DNA of 23,806 bases, from positions 1 to 23,806 of IMG/VR virus record IMGVR_UViG_3300028710_000003, one strand, 5' to 3'. This document shows positions 5,618 to 23,062 of the stretch, piece after piece. A program made the translations under genes and the position numbers. Every line of letters begins with the position of its first letter. The first letter of the stretch is position 1. The notes below the pieces were generated by a model. The model saw only the letters and a program-made list of their open reading frames with translations. It ran no database searches and was not told the origin of the DNA. Origin of the DNA: a virus.

Positions 5618-8600
5618 GTGGCCGACTACGACGCCGGGCGCGCGTTCCTGCAGATCGTTCCCTCCTTCCGGGGCGTCCGAGAGTCGATCAAGAAGCAGGC
5701 GAAGACGTGGGCCGACGACGTCGAGGGAGCGGTCGAGAAGGCGCTGCCGGAGGGCTTCACCAAGGGCAGCAAGGCGACTGAGCCGGTCGCGAAGAAGAAG
5801 GGCACGGAGACCGGCGAGGCCTACGGCGGGGCGTTCGCGCGGACGGTGAAGACCCGCGTCGAGGCGGCGCTGAAGGCGCTACCTCCGGTAAAGATCAACG
5901 CCGACTCGTCGCTGGTCGACATCAAGCTGGCGGCGATCCGCGCGGAGCTCGCCGATCTGTCGAAACAGAAGATCGGTGTCGACGTGGACGACGCGACCGC
6001 GCTGGCGCAACTGGAACGACTGAAGGCCGAACTGGACCAGATCGGCGCCGACTCCGCGTCGATCCAGGTCCGCGCCGACACCGCCACAGCGTCGGTCGAA
6101 CTCGACAAGCTCGCGGCGCAGATCCGTCGCATCGCCGACGACTCACCTACAGTCCAGGTCGATGCCGACACGGGGGCGGCGGACGCGAAGCTCGCCGCGA
6201 CGGGCGCCGAAGCGGCACGGCTGGGCGCGTCGTCACCGACGATCAGCCCGGACGTCGACTCCGGGCGGGCGTTGATCGGTATCGCGGTGATCCGGGCGGC
6301 GCTGCTCGCGTTGACCGCGGCACCCATCGTGATCCCGATCGCGGTGGCCGGCGCGTCACTCCTCGGCCCCTTGGCGGCCGCCGGAGCAGGCGCAGCAGGG
6401 TTCGGTGCTGTCGCCGCGTCCGGTCTGTCGCGGATTCACACCGCGATGCAGGCGCAGGACGCCGACACCGGGGGCGGTGGCCGTTCCGCGGCATCGCAGG
6501 TATCCGCGACGAACAGCATCCGCCTCGCGCAACTGGGACTCGCCGACGCGCAGCGGGCCGTCGCGGTCACTGCTCGGCAGAACGCGCAGGCTCAGGCCCA
6601 AGCCGCCGAGCAGGTACGCGCCGCTGAACAGTCGCTGGCCCAGGCGCAGCGGCAGGCCGCCGACGCGCAGAAGGCGCTCAATCAGGCTCGGGTAGATGCC
6701 AAGCGCGGCCTGGAAGACCTCGCGAACAGCCTCGCCGACGCGCAACTCGCGCAACGCCGGGCGCAGGCGAACCTCCGAGACGCGCAAGCCACCCTGACGG
6801 CGGTCCTCGGTGACCCGCGTTCAACCGCGGCGCAGCGAGAAGCCGCGCAGTTGGCCGTGGATGAGGCAACGCAGGCGCTGGCCGAACAGGGCCAAGCCGT
6901 CAAGCGGTTCGCCGAGGACAAGAAGGCCGCCGACAAGGCTGGGGTTAGCGGATCCGATCGGGTGCTGGCCGCTGAACGCAGGCTGGCGGACGCCCGGCGG
7001 GAGGCGGCGGACAGGCAGCGGGCGTTGTCGAAGGCCCGCGCCGAGCAGGCGTCGGTGGAGCTCCAGAACGCCGAGCGGAACATCCAGGCTCAGGAAGGTC
7101 TGGTACGCGCGCAACTCGGGCTGGCCTCCGCGCAGGCTTCGGCGGCCGCGGCGCAGGAGTCGGCGGCCGGCGCAACCAGCAAGCTCGACAAGGCGATGAA
7201 GGACTTGACGCCGACCGAACGCGCCGCCTTGGGCGCGTTCCGGGACTTCGGGCAGGCGTACCGGGACTGGGTCAGCGCGTTGGAGCCGGCGGTGTTCCCA
7301 GCGATCCTCGGCGGCCTCGACCTGATCAAGTCGTTGTTTAAGCCGCTGACACCCATCGTCCAGGCCGCATCCGGCGCGTTCGTGCAGCTGGAAAAGGACG
7401 CGCAGAAGGCGTTGACGTCGCCGTTCTGGAAAGACACCCTGGCGGCTCTCGCGAGGCTCACCGGCCCCGCGATCCTCGCGTTCGGACACGTCGTCGGGAA
7501 CGTCATCACCGGGATCGCCGGGATCGGGCGTGCCCTGTCGCCGACCGGCGGTGGGGTCCTGCGGAGCATCGAGGGCCTGTCCGAAAAGTTCGCGACCTTC
7601 GGGAAGAACGCCAACAAGCCGGGTGGCTTCCAGGACTTCCTGCACTGGGTACGGGAGAACCTCCCCAGGGCGATCGAGTGGCTCAAGGCGGTCGGCGAGG
7701 CGCTGCTACGGATCGGTCGCGCGCTGCTGCCGATCGGTGGCCTTGTCCTCGGCGGGATCAAACTCCTCGCGGACGTGATCAACGCGATGCCTCCGTCGCT
7801 CCTCGGGGCTATCGCTGCTGCCATCATCGCCGTCGCGGCGGCCGTGAAGTTGTGGGCCCTGGCCACCAAGGCCTTGGTGTTCTTTGAGGCGCTGCTGAAC
7901 TTGGAGCTAGGCCCGATCATCATCATCATCTTCGGCCTCGCGGCGGCGTTCCTCTATGCCTGGACGCAGTCCGAGCGATTCCGTGACATCGTCATCGGAG
8001 CACTGCTGTACGTCCGAGACACCGCGTTCGGTGCAGGCAGGCTGACCGCGAAGTACATCATCGACCCGATCCTGGGCCTGATCGCTTTGCTGCGGACCGC
8101 CTGGGCCAACATCAAAACTGTCTTCGCTACCGGCTGGGCCACGGTCAAGACGGTATTCGCCGACGTCTCCGGGTTCTTCCAGAAGTATTTCATCGGCCCG
8201 ATCGAGGCGATCCCCGCTGCGGCGAAACGGATCTGGGACGGCATCAAGAAGGTGTTCTATTCGGGCGTGAACGCCGTGATCGACATCATCAACGGGTTCA
8301 TCGGCGCGTTCAACTTCTTCTTCTCCAAGTTCGCGCCGACGCAGCGGATCCACTTCGATCTGATCCAGCACGTCGGGCAGAAGACCTCGGGCAAGGGCTT
8401 CGGTCTTGCCGGCGGCGGGGTGCTGCCCGGGTACGCGCCTGGTGTGGACTCGATCCCGGCGATGCTGTCACCCGGTGAGGGTGTGCTGGTTCCGGAGGCG
8501 GTCAGGGCGCTCGGCGCCGACTGGATCCTCGGCATCAACGCCGCGTTCAGCCGGCGGCGCCCAGGGACCAATGGGGCGTACGCCGGCGGCGGCGTCGTCG

Positions 8601-9466
8601 GCGACTTCCTCAGCTTGCTGCCGAGTCCGACCAGCGTCCTACCGGGCGTCAGCGGCAAGAGCCTGGTGTCCGGGCCGGCAGAGCGGATGCAGGCCCAACT
8701 GCGTCACGGCGGGGACCTCCCCGGCCGCGTGGGTGGGGCCGTGGCGGGCAGGCTCGCCGACGCGGTGGCCGCAGCGCTGGACAAGTCCATCAATCTGCTG
8801 CCGGCCGTCATGGCTGGCCTGACCGGCGGCGCGGCCCCCGCCGGCGGGGCAGTCTCCCGGTGGTCCGGTGTCGCCGGGCAGGCGCTGACGCAGCTCGGCC
8901 AGTCCACAACGCTGATCAACCCGGTGCTGCAGCTCATCAAGTTCGAGTCCGGCGGCAACCCAACCGCGGTCAACCGCACCGACATCAACTGGCAGCACGG
9001 CACCCCGTCCGTCGGATTGGCGCAGGTGATCGGGCCGACGTTCGCCGGTAACGCCGGCCCGTACCTCGGCACAGGGCCGTTCCTCTACGGGGTGAGCACG
9101 AACCCGCTGGCGAACGTGTTCGCCGGCCTCAACTACGGCATCCGCCGCTACGGGTCCGTCAGCAACATCCCCGGCATCAGATCCGTCCAGCACGGCGGCC
9201 CGTACCTGCCCTACGACCAGGGCGGCTACCTCCCGCCCGGCATGTCGGCAGTGTTCAACGGCACCGGCCGCCCGGAGCCGGTCCTGTCCGGCGCGCAGTG
9301 GGAGACGCTCGCCGGTTCCACCCGTGGCGGCGACGGGCCTATGACGATCTCCGGCACGCTGGACTTGGGGGATGGGCTGGTGGGCAGGGTGGAGGGCATC
9401 ATCGACGCCCGCGAACACCAGCAGGCACGGCAGGTCTCCTACGGTCGGCGAGCGGTGGCGGTGTAG
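5618..9466 (+). CDS. Tape measure protein with C-terminal lytic transglycosylase domain
   Basis: This is the largest gene, 1282 residues from GTG. The start MADYDAGRAFLQIVPSFRGV is a typical tape measure opening. Residues about 90-215 hold three 30-residue repeats plus partial copies. Residues 215-270 are strongly hydrophobic, 300-525 are an Ala/Gln/Arg-rich coiled coil, and residues about 725-785 form a second hydrophobic block including five Ile in a row. Residues about 1100-1190 are an SLT-type domain: KFESGGNPTAVN with probable catalytic Glu1110, SVGLAQVIGPTF, NPLANVFAGLNYGIRRYGS and IPGI. It ends with a GGYLPPG...EPVL segment common in these proteins. It sets tail length (by the usual ~0.15 nm per residue, near 190 nm) and the enzyme domain would open peptidoglycan at injection. 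The next gene starts at the base after its stop. Confidence 0.93.
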   Translation: MADYDAGRAFLQIVPSFRGVRESIKKQAKTWADDVEGAVEKALPEGFTKGSKATEPVAKKKGTETGEAYGGAFARTVKTRVEAALKALPPVKINADSSLVDIKLAAIRAELADLSKQKIGVDVDDATALAQLERLKAELDQIGADSASIQVRADTATASVELDKLAAQIRRIADDSPTVQVDADTGAADAKLAATGAEAARLGASSPTISPDVDSGRALIGIAVIRAALLALTAAPIVIPIAVAGASLLGPLAAAGAGAAGFGAVAASGLSRIHTAMQAQDADTGGGGRSAASQVSATNSIRLAQLGLADAQRAVAVTARQNAQAQAQAAEQVRAAEQSLAQAQRQAADAQKALNQARVDAKRGLEDLANSLADAQLAQRRAQANLRDAQATLTAVLGDPRSTAAQREAAQLAVDEATQALAEQGQAVKRFAEDKKAADKAGVSGSDRVLAAERRLADARREAADRQRALSKARAEQASVELQNAERNIQAQEGLVRAQLGLASAQASAAAAQESAAGATSKLDKAMKDLTPTERAALGAFRDFGQAYRDWVSALEPAVFPAILGGLDLIKSLFKPLTPIVQAASGAFVQLEKDAQKALTSPFWKDTLAALARLTGPAILAFGHVVGNVITGIAGIGRALSPTGGGVLRSIEGLSEKFATFGKNANKPGGFQDFLHWVRENLPRAIEWLKAVGEALLRIGRALLPIGGLVLGGIKLLADVINAMPPSLLGAIAAAIIAVAAAVKLWALATKALVFFEALLNLELGPIIIIIFGLAAAFLYAWTQSERFRDIVIGALLYVRDTAFGAGRLTAKYIIDPILGLIALLRTAWANIKTVFATGWATVKTVFADVSGFFQKYFIGPIEAIPAAAKRIWDGIKKVFYSGVNAVIDIINGFIGAFNFFFSKFAPTQRIHFDLIQHVGQKTSGKGFGLAGGGVLPGYAPGVDSIPAMLSPGEGVLVPEAVRALGADWILGINAAFSRRRPGTNGAYAGGGVVGDFLSLLPSPTSVLPGVSGKSLVSGPAERMQAQLRHGGDLPGRVGGAVAGRLADAVAAALDKSINLLPAVMAGLTGGAAPAGGAVSRWSGVAGQALTQLGQSTTLINPVLQLIKFESGGNPTAVNRTDINWQHGTPSVGLAQVIGPTFAGNAGPYLGTGPFLYGVSTNPLANVFAGLNYGIRRYGSVSNIPGIRSVQHGGPYLPYDQGGYLPPGMSAVFNGTGRPEPVLSGAQWETLAGSTRGGDGPMTISGTLDLGDGLVGRVEGIIDAREHQQARQVSYGRRAVAV
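5888..6250 (+). repeat. 30-residue repeats in the tape measure N-terminal region
   Basis: Residues about 90-215 contain consecutive units beginning KINADSS, IGVDVDD, IQVRADT, VQVDADT and a partial ISPDVDS. The middle three are about 30 residues apart. Each unit has a short beta-like (I/V)xVxxD start and an Ala/Leu-rich helix ending in (I/L)xxxS. The pattern is clear at protein level and weak at DNA level. Confidence 0.7.
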
Positions 9467-10264
9467 GTGGTCGCCGCGATCACCGTGACAGCGGACACCG
9501 CCAACTCGCGGATCAGCCTCGCCGTCACCGGCGCGACCGGTGGCACCGGCTATATCCGGCGCACCAACCCTGACGGCTCCGCGAACACGGTGCGGAACGG
9601 GGAGCCGGCGACGTTCACCGCGGGCGCGTGGTCGGACTACGACTACGAGGCCCCGATGGACCTCGCCGTCACCTACCAAGTCCTGTCCTCCGACCAGACG
9701 ACGGTGCAGGCCACCAGCAGCTCGGTGACGTTGGCCAGCGGCGACAAGACGTGGCTGAAAGACCCGAGCGTCCCCACGCTGAACTTCGTCTTGAAGGTCA
9801 CCGCGATGGGGGACCTGTCCCGCGAGCTCCCGATGGGCGTCTTCTACGTCGCGGGCCGCACGTACCCGGTGGTGACGACGGGCCGCCGGTTCGTGCCCAC
9901 CGGCGAGGTCGTCTGCTACACCGAGACGTTCGCCGAGCGGCAAGCGATGCTCAACATCCTGTCGTCGGGCCGGGTCCTGCAACTGTCCACCCCGGACGGG
10001 TACGGGTGGGGCGCCTACTACGTCACTGTCGGCACGGTGAACGAGCACCGACCTACACCAATCGCTGACAATTCGGTGCGGCACTGGACGCTGCCGCTGA
10101 CCATCACCGACCGGCCCGCGTACGTGTCGTCGGCCGCGTCGGGGAACACCTGGGGCGACGTGGTATCCAACTACGCCACCTGGGCCGACGTTATCCGGCT
10201 CAAGGCCACCTGGAACGACCTCATCGCCGCGGTCGCTCCCGCGACGCAGGCCCCGGGAGTCTGA
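9467..10264 (+). CDS. Distal tail (Dit-like) minor tail protein
   Basis: GTG 9467 immediately follows the tape measure stop, with no gap; 265 residues result. The N-terminal 95 residues are an Ig-like beta region (ITVTADTANSRISLAVTG, YQVLSSDQTTVQATSSSVTL). The remainder matches actinophage minor tail proteins that follow the tape measure: KTWLKDPSVPTLNFVLKV, FYVAGRTYPVVTTGRR, ETFAERQAMLNILSSGRVLQL, WTLPLTITDRP, and a C-terminal TWGDVVSNYATWADVIRLKATWNDLI run. The three-fold TW-D repeat at the end is characteristic of this family. In siphophages this position encodes the distal tail hub that attaches tip proteins. The exact fold is inferred from position and pattern. Confidence 0.78.
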   Translation: MVAAITVTADTANSRISLAVTGATGGTGYIRRTNPDGSANTVRNGEPATFTAGAWSDYDYEAPMDLAVTYQVLSSDQTTVQATSSSVTLASGDKTWLKDPSVPTLNFVLKVTAMGDLSRELPMGVFYVAGRTYPVVTTGRRFVPTGEVVCYTETFAERQAMLNILSSGRVLQLSTPDGYGWGAYYVTVGTVNEHRPTPIADNSVRHWTLPLTITDRPAYVSSAASGNTWGDVVSNYATWADVIRLKATWNDLIAAVAPATQAPGV

Positions 10265-13865: not shown

Positions 13866-14384
13866 GTGAGCGCTTTTCTGATCGCCTTGACGGTGGCGAT
13901 CCCCGCGTTCCTGGGGCCGTGGATCGCGATCCGCGCGAACGGCCGGGAACGGCGCAAGGACCAAGCGGCGACGTGGGCGCGGGACGACGAGGTAGCCGCG
14001 CAAGCAGCCAAGGCCGCCGAACTGCTCCTCGCGGCCCAGCAGGAGACCATCAAGCGTACGAATGAGGTGGCGAGGCACGTCGCCGCCGCCACGGCGAAGA
14101 CCGACGAGAAACTCGATGCGATCCACACCCTTGTGAACAGCGACATGACGGCCGCCCGGCAGTCGGAGCTGGACCAGACCAGGGTGACGTTGGTGATGCT
14201 CCGCAAGGTTGTCGCGCTCGACCACGCTGCTGGTCGCGCTCCATCCGAGCAGGACGTGGCGACGATCGAAACGACCGAGGCCCGCATCACCGAGCTGCAG
14301 GCGATCCTCATGGACCGGTTGGCGCAGCAGCAGGCGGTGGAGGCCGAGACCCGCGCGGCGAGGCTCAGCACCGGGGAGCAGTGA
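13866..14384 (+). CDS. N-terminally anchored coiled-coil protein of the lysis region
   Basis: GTG 13866 follows AAGGGGGGCGGGGC; 172 residues. One hydrophobic segment at residues 3-24 (AFLIALTVAIPAFLGPWIAI) is followed by an Arg-rich stop (RANGRERRKDQ), so the N-terminus is membrane-inserted with the rest probably cytoplasmic or at the membrane surface. Residues 40-170 are a charged coiled coil with KTDEKLDAIHTLVNSDMTAARQ and ITELQAILMDRLAQQQ. The 'HtLVNSdmTaar' block occurs in a set of actinophage proteins between tail fibre and lysin genes. It may be an accessory holin, a lysis regulator or an assembly factor. It overlaps the lysin gene by GTGA. Confidence 0.62.
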   Translation: MSAFLIALTVAIPAFLGPWIAIRANGRERRKDQAATWARDDEVAAQAAKAAELLLAAQQETIKRTNEVARHVAAATAKTDEKLDAIHTLVNSDMTAARQSELDQTRVTLVMLRKVVALDHAAGRAPSEQDVATIETTEARITELQAILMDRLAQQQAVEAETRAARLSTGEQ

Positions 14385-14839
14385 CCTCTCCCGCCGACCT
14401 CGGCTGGGGTGACCCGCACGTCCTCACCGACGCCGACATGACCGGTGCGCAGCTGTGGCCCGGTCATGTCGTGCGAGTCCGCAACGACGACGTAGCTGTA
14501 GTCGCCGTCGCTCTGGTCCGCCGGTTGCGGACCGCCGGGTGGCAGGGCCCGGATCCGCTGCTGGACGAGTGGGGTTACGCGCGCCGGCTGAAGCGGTCCG
14601 CCGAGGCGAAGTACCGAGCCCAGGGACTCACCGAGGCGCAGTGGCTGCAGCGGGCCGCCCTGTCGGAGTGGTCCGACCACGCGTGGGGCACCGCGATCGA
14701 CCTGGACACCGCAGCGAACCCGATGCTGGCCACCCGGCCAGCCGATCCGCAATCCCGCACCACTCGCCCCGTCGCCGCGTGCCCCGGCATCGCCGCATCC
14801 CTCGGATTGGAATGGGGCGGCGCCTGGACGACGCCGTAG
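14381..14839 (+). CDS. Endolysin peptidase domain (M15/VanY-like), cut short by in-frame TAG
   Basis: GTG 14381 overlaps the previous stop; 152 residues are read before TAG 14837-14839. The zinc peptidase pattern is clear: LSEWSDHAWGTAIDLD, the family's SxHxxGxAxD motif with His100 and Asp107 as two zinc ligands, followed by GLEWGGAW, which usually precedes the third ligand. That ligand is missing in the reading frame before the stop. Directly after the TAG the same frame reads DPQHWQVA, which matches the expected D..H(F/W)(E/Q) end, so His157 would be the third ligand. The frame then continues into the DUF1906 lysin at 14912. Without that histidine the short protein should be inactive. Either the codon is a nonsense mutation, a sequencing error, or is read through. 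Confidence 0.78.
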   Translation: MTSPADLGWGDPHVLTDADMTGAQLWPGHVVRVRNDDVAVVAVALVRRLRTAGWQGPDPLLDEWGYARRLKRSAEAKYRAQGLTEAQWLQRAALSEWSDHAWGTAIDLDTAANPMLATRPADPQSRTTRPVAACPGIAASLGLEWGGAWTTP

Positions 14840-14911
14840 GACCCCCAGCACTGGCAGGTTGCCGTGACCCCGCAGCGACTCGCGCAGATAGCGGCACCAC
14901 TCAGGAGATCC

Positions 14912-15877
14912 ATGGAAGTCCTCGACTACTCATCCGGCTACCCGGCGCCCGCCGCAGTGAAGGCGGCCGGGTACGCCGGCGTGGTCCGCTACACCGGCAC
15001 CCCCGGCCGCGGGAAGAACCTGACCCGCGCCGAAGCGCAAGCCATGACCGCCGCTGGTATCCCCGTCGCGCTCGTCTACGAAGACAGCGCCGGGTGGATG
15101 CGCGGGGGAGCGGCGGCGGGGATCGCTGCCGCTCGCGCCGTGCTGGCCGACGCCGCGAACTGCGGGGTCGGTGTCCGGTGCGTGTACTTCGCCTGTGACG
15201 AGGACGTCACCACGCAGATGGCTGTTGTCCTGGCGTGCCTCGACGGCGCCGCAACAGTCCTCGGCAGGAACCGCACCGGCGTGTACGGGGAAGCCGACGT
15301 CATCGACGCCGCGGTCCCCGGGCACGCCGCGTGGGGCTGGCAGACCCGCGCCTGGTCCGGCGGCCGCGTCTCCGCGAAAGCGCACCTGCTGCAGCAGATC
15401 GGCTACGTCACCGTCGGCGGCATCCAATGCGACCGGAACACCACCCTGAACGACGACTACGGCCAATGGCCGACCATACAGCGGGGAGACATCATGCTCG
15501 ACCCAGACGTGAAAGCCTACTTCGACGCCAAATTCCAGGCCGTCGGCGACGGCCTCGGCATCATCATCTGGGGCGACGAACGCGTCGACACCCCCACCCA
15601 CGGCGACGGGCACCCAGACAACATTCAGCGAGTCCGCGCAGAGGAGAAAGCCGACGCCGTCCTCGACGCGACCCGCGACGCGGCGGACGCCGCCCGGGAC
15701 GTGTCGCTCCTCGCGCAGATCGCCGCGGTGAACGCCCGCCTCGACACCCTCCAGACCGGCGGCGGGGGAACCCCCGTCGACCCGGCGGCGGTCGCGGCCG
15801 CGCTCGACTACGACCGGCTCGCCGCCGCGCTGGCCCCGCAGCTCGCGAACGTCCTCGGTAAGCGGCTGGAGTCCTGA
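14912..15877 (+). CDS. Endolysin module with DUF1906 (Rv2525c-like) glycoside hydrolase-like domain
   Basis: ATG 14912 has AGGAG four bases upstream, so this part can be made alone; it is in the same frame as the upstream peptidase. Of 321 residues, 1-195 match DUF1906: EVLDYSSGYPAPAAVKAAGYAGVVRY, a GRGKNLTRAEAQAMTAAGIPVALVYED strand-helix pattern, YFACDED, and the TRAWSGGRV..AHLLQQIGYVTVGGIQCDRN end. This TIM-barrel-like family is found in mycobacterial Rv2525c and in actinophage lysins and is thought to act on cell wall glycan. Residues about 200-321 are helical with a Gly-rich hinge and AAALDYDRLAAALAPQL, possibly for wall binding or oligomerisation. A 499-codon open stretch from 14381 interrupted only by TAG suggests an ancestral two-domain lysin. 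Confidence 0.78.
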   Translation: MEVLDYSSGYPAPAAVKAAGYAGVVRYTGTPGRGKNLTRAEAQAMTAAGIPVALVYEDSAGWMRGGAAAGIAAARAVLADAANCGVGVRCVYFACDEDVTTQMAVVLACLDGAATVLGRNRTGVYGEADVIDAAVPGHAAWGWQTRAWSGGRVSAKAHLLQQIGYVTVGGIQCDRNTTLNDDYGQWPTIQRGDIMLDPDVKAYFDAKFQAVGDGLGIIIWGDERVDTPTHGDGHPDNIQRVRAEEKADAVLDATRDAADAARDVSLLAQIAAVNARLDTLQTGGGGTPVDPAAVAAALDYDRLAAALAPQLANVLGKRLES

Positions 15878-15948
15878 TGGGCCTGCGCCTGTTCGCCCGC
15901 CGCACCGTATCCACCGATCAACCCCGCACCACCACCCGGAAGGCATGA
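15877..15948 (+). CDS. Possible 23-residue coupled small ORF between lysin and holin
   Basis: ATG 15877 overlaps the lysin stop by one base (TGATG), and its stop TGA 15946-15948 overlaps ATG 15945 (ATGA). The product is MGLRLFARRTVSTDQPRTTTRKA, basic and rich in Arg and Thr, with no membrane segment. Overlap at both ends is the evidence; there is no separate Shine-Dalgarno. It may be real, or merely a translational bridge that brings ribosomes to the holin start. Confidence 0.42.
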   Translation: MGLRLFARRTVSTDQPRTTTRKA

Positions 15949-15950
15949 CC

Positions 15951-16202
15951 ATGGCCTCACCAATCAAAACCAAGGCCACCTACATCCGCGACCTGGTCGA
16001 GCGAGTCGCCTCGACGTTCGTGATCACGTTCCTCGGCACGCTGGTCACCGGCGGCTGGTTCGACATCGCCCACATCCGCGACACCTCCGCGTTGCAGGCC
16101 GCCGGGCTCGCCGCCATCGCCGCAGTCCTGTCGCTGATCAAGGGCCTGGTCGCCAAGTTCGTGGCCAACCGGGACTCCGCGAGCCTCGCGCCCGGTGTCT
16201 GA
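15951..16202 (+). CDS. Holin, r1t-type
   Basis: The chosen start is ATG 15951 because GGAAGG lies seven bases upstream; ATG 15945 is six bases earlier, coupled to the small ORF but too close to that Shine-Dalgarno. The 83-residue protein has two hydrophobic segments, FVITFLGTLVTGGWF and AAGLAAIAAVLSLIKGLVAKFVA, separated by a loop with DIAHIRDTSALQ, and an N-terminal charged helix YIRDLVERVASTF. This matches the r1t holin family, which opens the membrane so that endolysins reach the wall. Its position after the lysin and before a permuted NlpC/P60-like gene completes a lysis module. The two ATG codons might make two forms with opposing effects as in some dual-start holins, but this is only a possibility. 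Confidence 0.82.
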   Translation: MASPIKTKATYIRDLVERVASTFVITFLGTLVTGGWFDIAHIRDTSALQAAGLAAIAAVLSLIKGLVAKFVANRDSASLAPGV

Positions 16203-16707
16203 GCCGCTCGCGCATTCCTCCGCGCCCGGGTCGCCGCTACACGGCGACTTCGGGTTGCAGGCCGGCTCCGGACTGGCCATGTTCCTCGTCCGGGTCGGCA
16301 CCCTGAGCCGGTGGGGTCATGCCTGCATCGCAGTCGGGGACGCGGCCGGCGGGCAGATCCAGATCGTGGAGGCCATGCCCGAGGGTGTCCGGACCCGCAC
16401 CAGCACCGTCGGGTCGTGGGTGTGGTCAAACGTGCCGCTCACCGACGCGCAACGCGACCACATCGCCGGCACCGCGTTCACCGAGGTCGGGAAGCCCTAC
16501 GACTGGCCGAGCATCGCCGGGTTCGTCCTACGGCACTTCGGGATGCACCTACGCGGGAAGCGGTCGAAGGATCACCCGGATGACAGCTTGATCTGTTCGG
16601 AGCTGGCCGCCTGGAGTTATCGGGAGGCTGGCGTCGACCTGTTCCCTGACGTAGCTCCTGGCGATGTGGCTCCTGGCGACTTGGCCGAATACCTCGTCGT
16701 GCACTGA
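16195..16707 (+). CDS. Permuted NlpC/P60-like (YiiX-type) Cys/His protein
   Basis: The start GTG 16195 overlaps the holin gene by eight bases; 170 residues. The arrangement is that of the circularly permuted NlpC/P60 families: His42 in SRWGHACIAVGD comes before Cys134 in DDSLICSELAAWSYREAG. Between them are EAMPEGVRTRT, an Asp-rich loop, and GKPYDWPSIAGFVLRHFG, matching the 'g..YD...i..f.l' block of YiiX/DUF830-type proteins. These enzymes are cysteine hydrolases acting on peptides, amides or lipids; the target here is unknown. The end carries a duplicated VAPGD. It is the last gene before the terminator. It could help lysis or modify an envelope component. Confidence 0.74.
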   Translation: MSEPLAHSSAPGSPLHGDFGLQAGSGLAMFLVRVGTLSRWGHACIAVGDAAGGQIQIVEAMPEGVRTRTSTVGSWVWSNVPLTDAQRDHIAGTAFTEVGKPYDWPSIAGFVLRHFGMHLRGKRSKDHPDDSLICSELAAWSYREAGVDLFPDVAPGDVAPGDLAEYLVVH

Positions 16708-19931: not shown

Positions 19932-20227
19932 CACGCCGCCGCCTTCCGGTCGATCTGCCCGGCCTGTGCGGCTTCCTTGCGGGCCTGACTGCGGATCGTC
20001 TCCCACCGCCGTGGGCTTGTACCGGCGCGGATGCCGTACTCGTCCCCGGTGTCAGCGAGAGCGTCCTGCAGGCACTGCGCGGCAACGGGGCACGAGGCGC
20101 AGATCCGGCGGGCCTCCACGGCGAGACCGGCGTCCGGATACCACAGCTCGGGGTCGGTCTGGGCGCACACTGCCATGCGCTGCCAGCCGGGCGCGGGGCG
20201 TTCGAACAACTGGGCAGTGGCGATCAT
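19931..20227 (-). CDS. whiB: WhiB-family iron-sulfur regulator
   Basis: ATG complementary to 20225-20227 overlaps the HIT gene stop (ATGA) and gives 98 residues; the longer open frame starting at 20251 overlaps that gene and is rejected. The four cluster-binding cysteines are Cys21, Cys43, Cys46 and Cys52, arranged C-x21-C-x2-C-x5-C. The turn motif that is usually G(V/I)WGG reads GIRAGTS, so the Trp and one Gly are replaced. The C-terminus is basic (PRRWETIRSQARKEAAQ). WhiB proteins bind a 4Fe-4S cluster and the sigma factor to control transcription; phage WhiB proteins such as that of TM4 can alter host division. The altered turn might change sigma-factor contact. Confidence 0.88.
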   Translation of the reverse strand: MIATAQLFERPAPGWQRMAVCAQTDPELWYPDAGLAVEARRICASCPVAAQCLQDALADTGDEYGIRAGTSPRRWETIRSQARKEAAQAGQIDRKAAA

Positions 20228-20571
20228 GACGCCGCCTTTTGGCCGGTCCACGGCAGCGTCAGTCCGTCATCACGGCGGCGCGGCACGACGTGGACATGCA
20301 GGTGCTTCACGGTCTGCGTGGCCTCCGGGCCGACCGACGTGATGATGTTGCAGGGCATGAGCGCCCGGGCCATCTCCGCGGCGGCGACCATCACGGCGCC
20401 GGTGGTGATCGGGTTCTCGGCGGCATGGTCGACGTGCCGGCGCGGGACGACGAGCACGTGCCCGTCGGTGACGGGGTTCGGCGGCTGGAAGGCGACGGCG
20501 TCGGACCACTGCCGGTCGTAGTCGCCGGCCTTGATGCGGTCGCAGAACGGGCAGGTGGTCGGGGCGGACAT
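20224..20571 (-). CDS. HIT-family nucleotide-binding protein
   Basis: This 115-residue protein starts at ATG complementary to 20569-20571 with AGGGGGAG upstream. It begins with TCPFCDRIKAGDYDRQWSDAVAFQPPNPVTDGHVLVVPRRHV (in pieces), the usual HIT start in which CPFC..I and the strand-Pro-rich turn-HVLVVP.RH can be seen. The signature KHLHVHVVPRRRDD at residues 89-102 carries the His90-x-His92-x-His94 triad; His94 would be the catalytic nucleophile in hydrolase members. HIT proteins hydrolyse or transfer nucleotidyl groups from substrates such as dinucleoside polyphosphates or AMP-lysine. HIT genes are unusual in phages. It is the first gene after a perfect hairpin and is coupled to whiB. Confidence 0.85.
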   Translation of the reverse strand: MSAPTTCPFCDRIKAGDYDRQWSDAVAFQPPNPVTDGHVLVVPRRHVDHAAENPITTGAVMVAAAEMARALMPCNIITSVGPEATQTVKHLHVHVVPRRRDDGLTLPWTGQKAAS

Positions 20572-21974: not shown

Positions 21975-22586
21975 TCAGTAGCCGATGTAGTCGTCGCCGG
22001 CCTGGACACGGCGAGCGCCGGGGATGGCCTCGATCGACCCGTACCGGCCGATCGCGTAGTGCGTGCAGGCGGCGATGTTGCAGGGCGGGTCGTAGATCCC
22101 CGCCGGGCCGCGCTTGCGGCATCCGGCCGGTGCGTGCGCTGCGTACGTCGGGGCGATGGCCTGCATCAACCCCATCGACGGGGTGTGCAGGTCGGTGTAG
22201 TTGCGGTCCCAGCAGTTGATGGCGTGGACCTTGCCGCCGGACTCGTGGTTGATCGCGATGTGCACGATGCGGCGTTCGGTCGCGGAGTACGGGCGGTGCA
22301 GCAGCACGCCGGCCGCGGTGATCCACCGGTCGATCTGTGCGTCGCTGGCCGGCGTCTCGTCGTTGGGGTGGCACACCCCCGGTGCGTACTTACCGCCCTT
22401 CGTGCTGCCGCTGGGCAGCGACGGGAGCCGGTCCTGGATGACCTGCGGTACCCGTACGCCGTGGCCGGTGCCCGACTTGCCTAGGTGCCCGGCGAGCTGC
22501 GGCATCGCGGCCGGGCCGCCAATGGCCAACACCGCCGCCAGTGCGATCCACGGCTTACTCGGGATCCACCCGCCACGACGCGCCAT
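21975..22586 (-). CDS. Exported lytic transglycosylase (SLT-type)
   Basis: ATG complementary to 22584-22586 overlaps the upstream stop (TGATG); 203 residues. A signal peptide or anchor is at residues 11-32 (KPWIALAAVLAIGGPAAMPQLA). The catalytic domain has HESGG with Glu115, SMGLMQAIAPTYAAHAP, then IYDPPCNIAACTHYAIGRYGSIEAIPG. The end pattern resembles that of the tape measure's SLT domain (NPLANVFAGLNYGIRRYGS), so both belong to one fold group. It would cleave peptidoglycan glycan strands outside the membrane. It lies in a leftward cassette with membrane proteins, away from the lysis genes, so the role is probably not host lysis. Its length is small for a full transglycosylase but enough for the domain. 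Confidence 0.8.
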   Translation of the reverse strand: MARRGGWIPSKPWIALAAVLAIGGPAAMPQLAGHLGKSGTGHGVRVPQVIQDRLPSLPSGSTKGGKYAPGVCHPNDETPASDAQIDRWITAAGVLLHRPYSATERRIVHIAINHESGGKVHAINCWDRNYTDLHTPSMGLMQAIAPTYAAHAPAGCRKRGPAGIYDPPCNIAACTHYAIGRYGSIEAIPGARRVQAGDDYIGY

Positions 22587-23062
22587 CAGGACCCCTTGGC
22601 CAGCGGGCACGCCCGGCACCAGAACGCGTACACCGCGACCAGCACCATCACAACCAGTGCCAGCGTCGTACCGGCCGAGTCGACCACCACCATCGCGGTC
22701 GGGTTACGGCGAGGCACGAACGCCATCACCGCGGCGATGCCGTGGACGGCGAGGAGCGCGAGGTACATGACCGCCCGCGCACCACGCGACACCGCGCGTC
22801 GCTCCGGCGAGTAGCCGGGCAGCAGCGCCCACAGCGCGACCGTCATCACGAACGCGGCGGCGGCGTACGACGGATTCCCGTCGGGTGCCCCGTTGACGAT
22901 GCCGGTACGGACAGCCCCGTAATCCGCGAGGGCCAGCAGCGCGAGGCCACCCATGATGGTGAGCCGGGGCTGGTCGAACATCCCCGCCTTCTCGGCGACC
23001 GTAGGCACGGGCCGGGCTGGCAGCGGAGCCTTCGCCGCGACCCGCTCGCTGACCGAGGGCAT
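22586..23062 (-). CDS. Membrane protein with four transmembrane segments
   Basis: ATG complementary to 23060-23062 overlaps the stop of the 33-residue gene upstream (TGATG), giving 158 residues; a longer frame to 23170 is rejected because of that gene. After a Pro/Ala-rich N-terminus, hydrophobic segments are LTIMGGLALLALADYGAV, YAAAAFVMTVALWALL, AVMYLALLAVHGIAAVMAFV and TTLALVVMVLVAVYAFW, with CRACPLAKGS at the end. No known family is recognised. It stands directly before the exported transglycosylase, so the two could work together, for example to place the enzyme or to move a substrate. Confidence 0.65.
   Translation of the reverse strand: MPSVSERVAAKAPLPARPVPTVAEKAGMFDQPRLTIMGGLALLALADYGAVRTGIVNGAPDGNPSYAAAAFVMTVALWALLPGYSPERRAVSRGARAVMYLALLAVHGIAAVMAFVPRRNPTAMVVVDSAGTTLALVVMVLVAVYAFWCRACPLAKGS

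What the first reader, a model, noticed from the sequence alone, without database searches (positions are those of the whole stretch)
14381..15877. In-frame amber codon cuts the lysin just before its third zinc ligand
The M15-type peptidase frame (14381) shows His100 and Asp107 of SxHxxGxAxD, but stops at TAG 14837-14839. Immediately after the TAG the same frame reads DPQHWQVA, which fits the missing D..H(W/F) motif, and runs on without another stop into the DUF1906 lysin module to 15877. The full stretch is 499 codons. So the peptidase as annotated cannot be an active zinc enzyme, while the DUF1906 part has its own AGGAG and ATG at 14912. Either this is a recent nonsense mutation in a prophage, a sequencing error, or a deliberate low-level read-through that makes a two-domain lysin beside a free DUF1906 protein.
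Basis: partly seen in the sequence, partly recalled or inferred. Interest (0 to 1): 0.8.

Follow-up and report, generated by a model that had tools for sequence, protein, structure and literature searches.

The report
Phage lysin peptidase cut by amber
A soil actinobacterial phage carries a cell-wall-cutting peptidase gene broken by one in-frame stop codon just before its active site is complete, next to an intact second lysin gene; most likely this is an ordinary recent gene loss, with read-through of the stop possible but unsupported.

Summary
At 14381-14836 an M15_4 (L-Ala-D-Glu type) peptidase ORF carries S98xH100xxG103xxxD107 and stops at TAG 14837-14839. The same frame then reads D154-P-Q-H157-W. 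D and H are invariant in 28 of 28 aligned sequences, and reading through raises the Pfam score from 43.6 to 55.2 bits. AlphaFold puts the post-TAG strand and helix inside the M15 fold (pLDDT 96-98). The truncated product lacks the third zinc ligand and also the catalytic Asp. None of about 70 related M15 ORFs stops there. A second, 59-kb IMG/VR record is identical over all 23,806 bases. TAG is an ordinary stop in this phage (14 of 97 predicted ORFs) and the 59 kb holds no tRNA, so phage recoding is unlikely. No read-through-like RNA structure follows the TAG. The DUF1906 lysin starts on its own at ATG 14912, where its relatives start. The open frame into it is unremarkable: several neighbouring genes here lie in frame behind one stop. 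No M15-DUF1906 fusion turned up in any record tested. Best reading: a nonsense-inactivated M15 module beside a working DUF1906 lysin. Basal read-through or an assembly error remain possible.

The parts
14381..14839 (+). Truncated Peptidase_M15_4 ORF (152 aa, GTG start overlapping the upstream TGA, ends TAG 14837-14839); carries S98, H100, G103, D107 but not D154/H157
14837..14839 (+). In-frame amber codon at a site that is not conserved in relatives (P, K, R, C, Y, A, V there)
14840..14911 (+). Untranslated C-terminal end of the M15 domain: catalytic Asp (D154), third zinc ligand (H157), last strand and C-terminal helix; runs without a stop into the DUF1906 start
14903..14907 (+). AGGAG Shine-Dalgarno-like site for the DUF1906 lysin
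   Evidence: sequence; inference from position
14912..15877 (+). DUF1906 / Rv2525c-like glycoside hydrolase-like lysin (321 aa, ATG start), intact
15945..16202 (+). Holin (Phage_r1t_holin, phrog_443), part of the same lysis cassette
16195..16707 (+). Permuted papain-like (C92 / phrog_1128) putative amidase next to the holin; a possible further lytic enzyme (weak Pfam match, below cut-off)
13866..14384 (+). Upstream gene, no family match; its TGA overlaps the GTG of the M15 ORF

Best explanation
A single in-frame nonsense codon has inactivated the M15 (L-Ala-D-Glu-type) peptidase module of the lysis cassette of an actinobacterial phage or prophage. The ribosome makes a 152-residue fragment without catalytic Asp or third zinc ligand, which is expected to be inactive and probably unstable. 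The downstream DUF1906 glycoside-hydrolase-like lysin starts independently at ATG 14912 from its AGGAG and, with the holin, carries lysis. Shown: the truncation, the missing residues, the intact downstream gene with a homologous start. Inferred: loss of activity, recency of the mutation (the motif after the TAG is still perfect), and sufficiency of the DUF1906 lysin.
For: The post-TAG sequence completes the M15 domain. EndoT5-type M15_C peptidases need H66, D73, H133 for zinc and D130 for catalysis (PMC10487532); H133 and D130 correspond to H157 and D154. 0 of 22 first-pass and 0 of 49 further M15 loci other than this phage stop at this point. TAG ends 14 of 97 predicted ORFs including the tape measure gene. 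No tRNA in 59 kb. RNA after the TAG is no more structured than shuffles, z = 0.06. DUF1906 relatives have the domain at the N-terminus with a start codon at or just before it in most cases, and none has M15_4 in its record. Some Gordonia phages carry M15 and GH lysins as separate genes (PMC9671378), so one enzyme of a pair is a plausible thing to lose.
Against: Nothing else in the gene is decayed, so a functional read-through product cannot be excluded. If the TAG is read as sense, the M15 and DUF1906 modules form one open frame with no stop between them. PMC7918605 argues that many in-frame stops in prokaryotic genes are tolerated by read-through. There is no close relative with which to measure selection.
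Confidence: 0.64

Rival explanations
1. Low-level read-through of the TAG makes some M15-DUF1906 two-domain lysin beside a majority of free DUF1906 protein, a stop-codon version of the two-product endolysins made from internal starts.
For: Frame open on both sides, post-TAG domain end perfectly kept, own SD and ATG for the second product; Ms6 LysA and other endolysins make two products from one gene by internal initiation (PMC3314691; PMC9430671).
Against: No suppressor tRNA or any tRNA in 59 kb; TAG is a normal stop elsewhere; no structured element after the TAG; no M15-DUF1906 fusion found in 32 DUF1906 and 40 M15 viral records; in-frame neighbours are common here.
Confidence: 0.13
2. The TAG is a sequencing or assembly error and the gene is intact.
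For: Metagenome contig; single-base change at an unconserved position; rest of the gene intact.
Against: A second IMG/VR record carries the identical 23,806 bases including the TAG. Whether the two assemblies are independent is not known.
Confidence: 0.11
3. The truncated M15 protein is a functional, non-catalytic or otherwise active product.
For: Codon usage before the TAG looks coding; no other lesion.
Against: It loses two invariant active-site residues plus the last strand and helix of the fold; no relative has this form.
Confidence: 0.08
4. The host, not the phage, decodes UAG (suppressor strain or recoded host).
For: Host unknown; TAG recoding is established in crAss-like phages (PMC9523058, PMC10607447).
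Against: TAG is used as a normal terminator by 14 of 97 predicted genes, and the other in-frame TAGs between coding stretches look like ordinary gene boundaries or fall in shadow frames.
Confidence: 0.03

Closest known systems
Split lysin A of Gordonia phages (e.g. Cozz gp20 M15 + gp21 glycosyl hydrolase; cluster CT/DR)
   Same: M15_4 peptidase ORF directly upstream of a glycoside-hydrolase-type lysin ORF, each with its own start (PMC9671378)
   Different: In Cozz the M15 gene reaches its D..H motif and ends with a short gene overlap, and the second gene is GH25-type there; here the M15 ends early and the partner is DUF1906
Multidomain mycobacteriophage LysA with N1 (L-Ala-D-Glu peptidase) domain, e.g. 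Leogania, DarthPhader
   Same: M15 module at the N-terminus of a modular lysin
   Different: Those are continuous single ORFs; here a TAG separates the modules
Two-product endolysins with internal starts (Ms6 LysA, CTP1L, others)
   Same: A downstream in-frame start with SD would give a shorter product
   Different: In those the long product is made by ordinary translation; here it would need read-through
Ply500 / EndoT5 M15_C endolysins
   Same: Alignment to Ply500 (2vo9) spans the TAG and includes the D..H motif; the model's best PDB matches are M15 enzymes
   Different: Active enzymes; the window ORF stops before the catalytic Asp and last His
TAG-recoded phages (crAss-like, code 15)
   Same: In-frame TAG in a late gene
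   Different: No suppressor tRNA found and TAG is a normal stop here

Membership tests
Peptidase_M15_4 / M15_C L-Ala-D-Glu peptidase (active enzyme) | SxHxxGxAxD with first two zinc ligands | tested here: met
   H100, D107 invariant in 28/28
Peptidase_M15_4 / M15_C L-Ala-D-Glu peptidase (active enzyme) | Catalytic Asp and third zinc His (D..H[FW]) | tested here: not met
   Both lie after the TAG; present only in the read-through reading
DUF1906 / Rv2525c-like lysin | PF08924 domain above cut-off with conserved Asp pair | tested here: met
   71.1 bits vs 27.2; D96, D98 (numbered from Met 14912) invariant in A2
DUF1906 / Rv2525c-like lysin | Peptidoglycan-degrading activity | not testable with these tools
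   needs an assay
TAG-recoded phage | Suppressor tRNA in phage | tested here: not met
   No tRNA in 59 kb; the record lacks a terminase match, so it may be incomplete
TAG-recoded phage | TAG avoided as terminator and found inside many genes | tested here: not met
   TAG ends 14/97 ORFs
Programmed read-through gene | Conserved stop codon across diverged relatives | tested here: not met
   Only an identical record has it; other M15 relatives have sense codons
Programmed read-through gene | Extended product detected | not testable with these tools
   needs mass spectrometry
M15-DUF1906 fusion lysin | Single continuous ORF in some relative | tested here: not met
   0 of 72 records hold both families

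The most novel reading that the evidence does not exclude
The amber codon is a maintained, leaky switch: most ribosomes stop and free DUF1906 lysin is made from its own start, while rare read-through yields a bifunctional M15-DUF1906 lysin, setting a low dose of peptidase activity in the lysis programme of an actinobacterial phage without any phage-encoded suppressor.
Probability: 0.1. Interest if true: 0.6.

Novelty: new variant of a known kind. Interest (0 to 1): 0.3.

Why it matters
If ordinary, it is a clear example of losing one enzyme of a lysin pair while its neighbour stays intact, and a caution that automatic annotation would call the fragment a peptidase. If read-through is real, it would be a stop-codon route to two-product endolysins in a standard-code phage. 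The M15 plus DUF1906 pairing itself was not seen in any other record tested.

Tried and rejected
Phage-level TAG recoding: rejected. Frameshift explanation: rejected, motif in frame on both sides of the TAG. GTG 14864 as start of the second ORF (the longest mechanical call): rejected in favour of ATG 14912 by homology. Natural early end of the M15 family: rejected. Read-through-stimulating RNA structure: none found. Close relatives: no phage or plasmid match to the M15 ORF at the set limits and only distant viral and genomic ones. Cellular genomes of the right phylum could not be scanned. A1 was too diverse to search with. Folding the whole read-through fusion was uninformative for M15: its part modelled poorly with a mixed alignment, while the DUF1906 barrel modelled well. 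Foldseek TM-scores of the M15 model are low (0.26-0.45), although the seven leading PDB matches are all M15 enzymes. Codon statistics of the 24 codons after the TAG are inconclusive: the first 14 look coding, the last 10 do not.

Full report
What is there. The frame starting at GTG 14381 (overlapping the TGA of the preceding gene) encodes a Peptidase_M15_4 domain and stops at TAG 14837-14839. The next codons in the same frame read DPQHWQVAVTPQRLAQIAAPLRRS and pass without a stop into MEVLDYSSG..., the DUF1906 (Rv2525c-like) lysin that ends at TGA 15875-15877. Pfam gives 43.6 bits for the stopped protein and 55.2 bits when the TAG is read as a residue, the match growing from profile position 61 to 69 of 70. 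The same family model applied to the 59-kb sister record reports the match with one TAG inside.

Is it more than chance. Aligned with 27 M15_4 proteins from other viral contigs, D154 and H157 are invariant, as are S98, H100, G103 and D107, while the TAG column holds P, K, R, C, Y, A or V. The alignment to the solved Listeria phage endolysin Ply500 spans the TAG and includes the D..H motif. In phage T5 endolysin the equivalent residues are zinc ligands H66, D73, H133 and catalytic D130 (PMC10487532). So the stop removes both the third zinc ligand and the catalytic Asp. AlphaFold of the read-through domain gives mean pLDDT 87.3, pTM 0.84; the strand 157-160 and the helix 164-175 after the TAG have the highest confidence. 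The seven best PDB matches of the model are all M15 enzymes, though with low TM-scores and none at E <= 0.001.

Is it an error. Another IMG/VR record, IMGVR_UViG_3300042857_000012 (59,211 bases), contains the whole window with 100% identity, TAG included. A pattern scan with the codon left free found only that record. The two may come from the same DNA, so this lowers but does not remove the possibility of a shared error.

Is the code different. In the 59-kb record a simple codon-usage gene finder gave 97 ORFs ending with TGA (79), TAG (14) and TAA (4); the tape measure gene ends with TAG directly before the next gene. No tRNA was found. Phage-wide recoding is therefore unlikely. The record lacks a terminase match and may be incomplete, so an unseen tRNA cannot be ruled out.

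Is it a natural boundary. Of the first-pass loci and 51 second-pass M15 loci (some overlapping), only this phage's record lacks the D..H motif because of a stop; the others run through it in frame (L128 has DAMHM, shown). Many of them end 5-14 residues later, so the piece between TAG and ATG 14912 is close to the expected length of a domain end.

Is the fusion natural. The DUF1906 start at ATG 14912 aligns with the annotated first residue of Archimedes gp19 and of the Perlina glycosyl hydrolase lysin. In the viral-contig relatives the DUF1906 domain lies at the N-terminus with a start codon at or just before it in most cases. None of the 32 related DUF1906 records holds an M15_4 domain and none of 40 M15 records holds DUF1906. 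The two closest DUF1906 relatives, about 48% identical, have a different gene upstream. The open frame across the junction is not strong evidence for fusion: a 24-codon stretch would be stop-free in about two thirds of off-frame cases, and several neighbouring genes of this phage lie in frame behind a single stop. If the TAG were sense, however, the encoded product would necessarily be a fusion, because no other stop lies between.

How it most likely works. The ribosome enters the M15 ORF through the overlapping GTG, stops at the TAG, and the fragment is inactive. The DUF1906 lysin is initiated from AGGAG 14903-14907 and, with the holin 15945-16202 and perhaps the C92-like protein 16195-16707, performs lysis. 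Paired and separable lysins are known in Gordonia phages (PMC9671378; Cozz), and multidomain LysA with an M15 N-terminus in mycobacteriophages (PMC3314691). Loss of one of two enzymes is therefore an ordinary event. Read-through remains the interesting alternative; nothing found here supports it beyond an otherwise undamaged reading frame, and the RNA after the TAG is not unusually structured.

Limits. The host is not known; that it is actinobacterial is inferred from 69% GC and from matches to Gordonia, Rhodococcus, Mycobacterium and Streptomyces phages. Cellular actinobacterial genomes could not be searched by kinship, no relative is close enough for a selection test, and raw reads were not available.

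Noticed in passing
9464-9469: The tape measure ORF (5618-9466) ends with TAG and the next gene starts at the adjoining GTG 9467 in the same frame, a second TAG between in-frame neighbours.
   Followed up: partly
14434-14471: Near-perfect inverted repeat inside the 5' part of the M15 coding sequence (GACATGACCGG ... CCGGTCATGTC); the surrounding 66 nt fold at -33.4 kcal/mol, z = -2.97 against shuffles.
   Followed up: partly
21975-22619 (-) and 5618-9466: A minus-strand gene matches the same families as the C-terminal lytic-transglycosylase-like part of the tape measure protein.
   Followed up: no
L038:12472-13371, L038:6912-8012, L039:7649-8599: The 59-kb sister record has a second tyrosine integrase, an FtsK/SpoIIIE-like protein and a weak replication-initiator match, suggesting a mosaic or neighbouring mobile element; no terminase match was found.
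   Followed up: partly
20224-20571 (-): HIT-domain protein encoded near the integrase.
   Followed up: no
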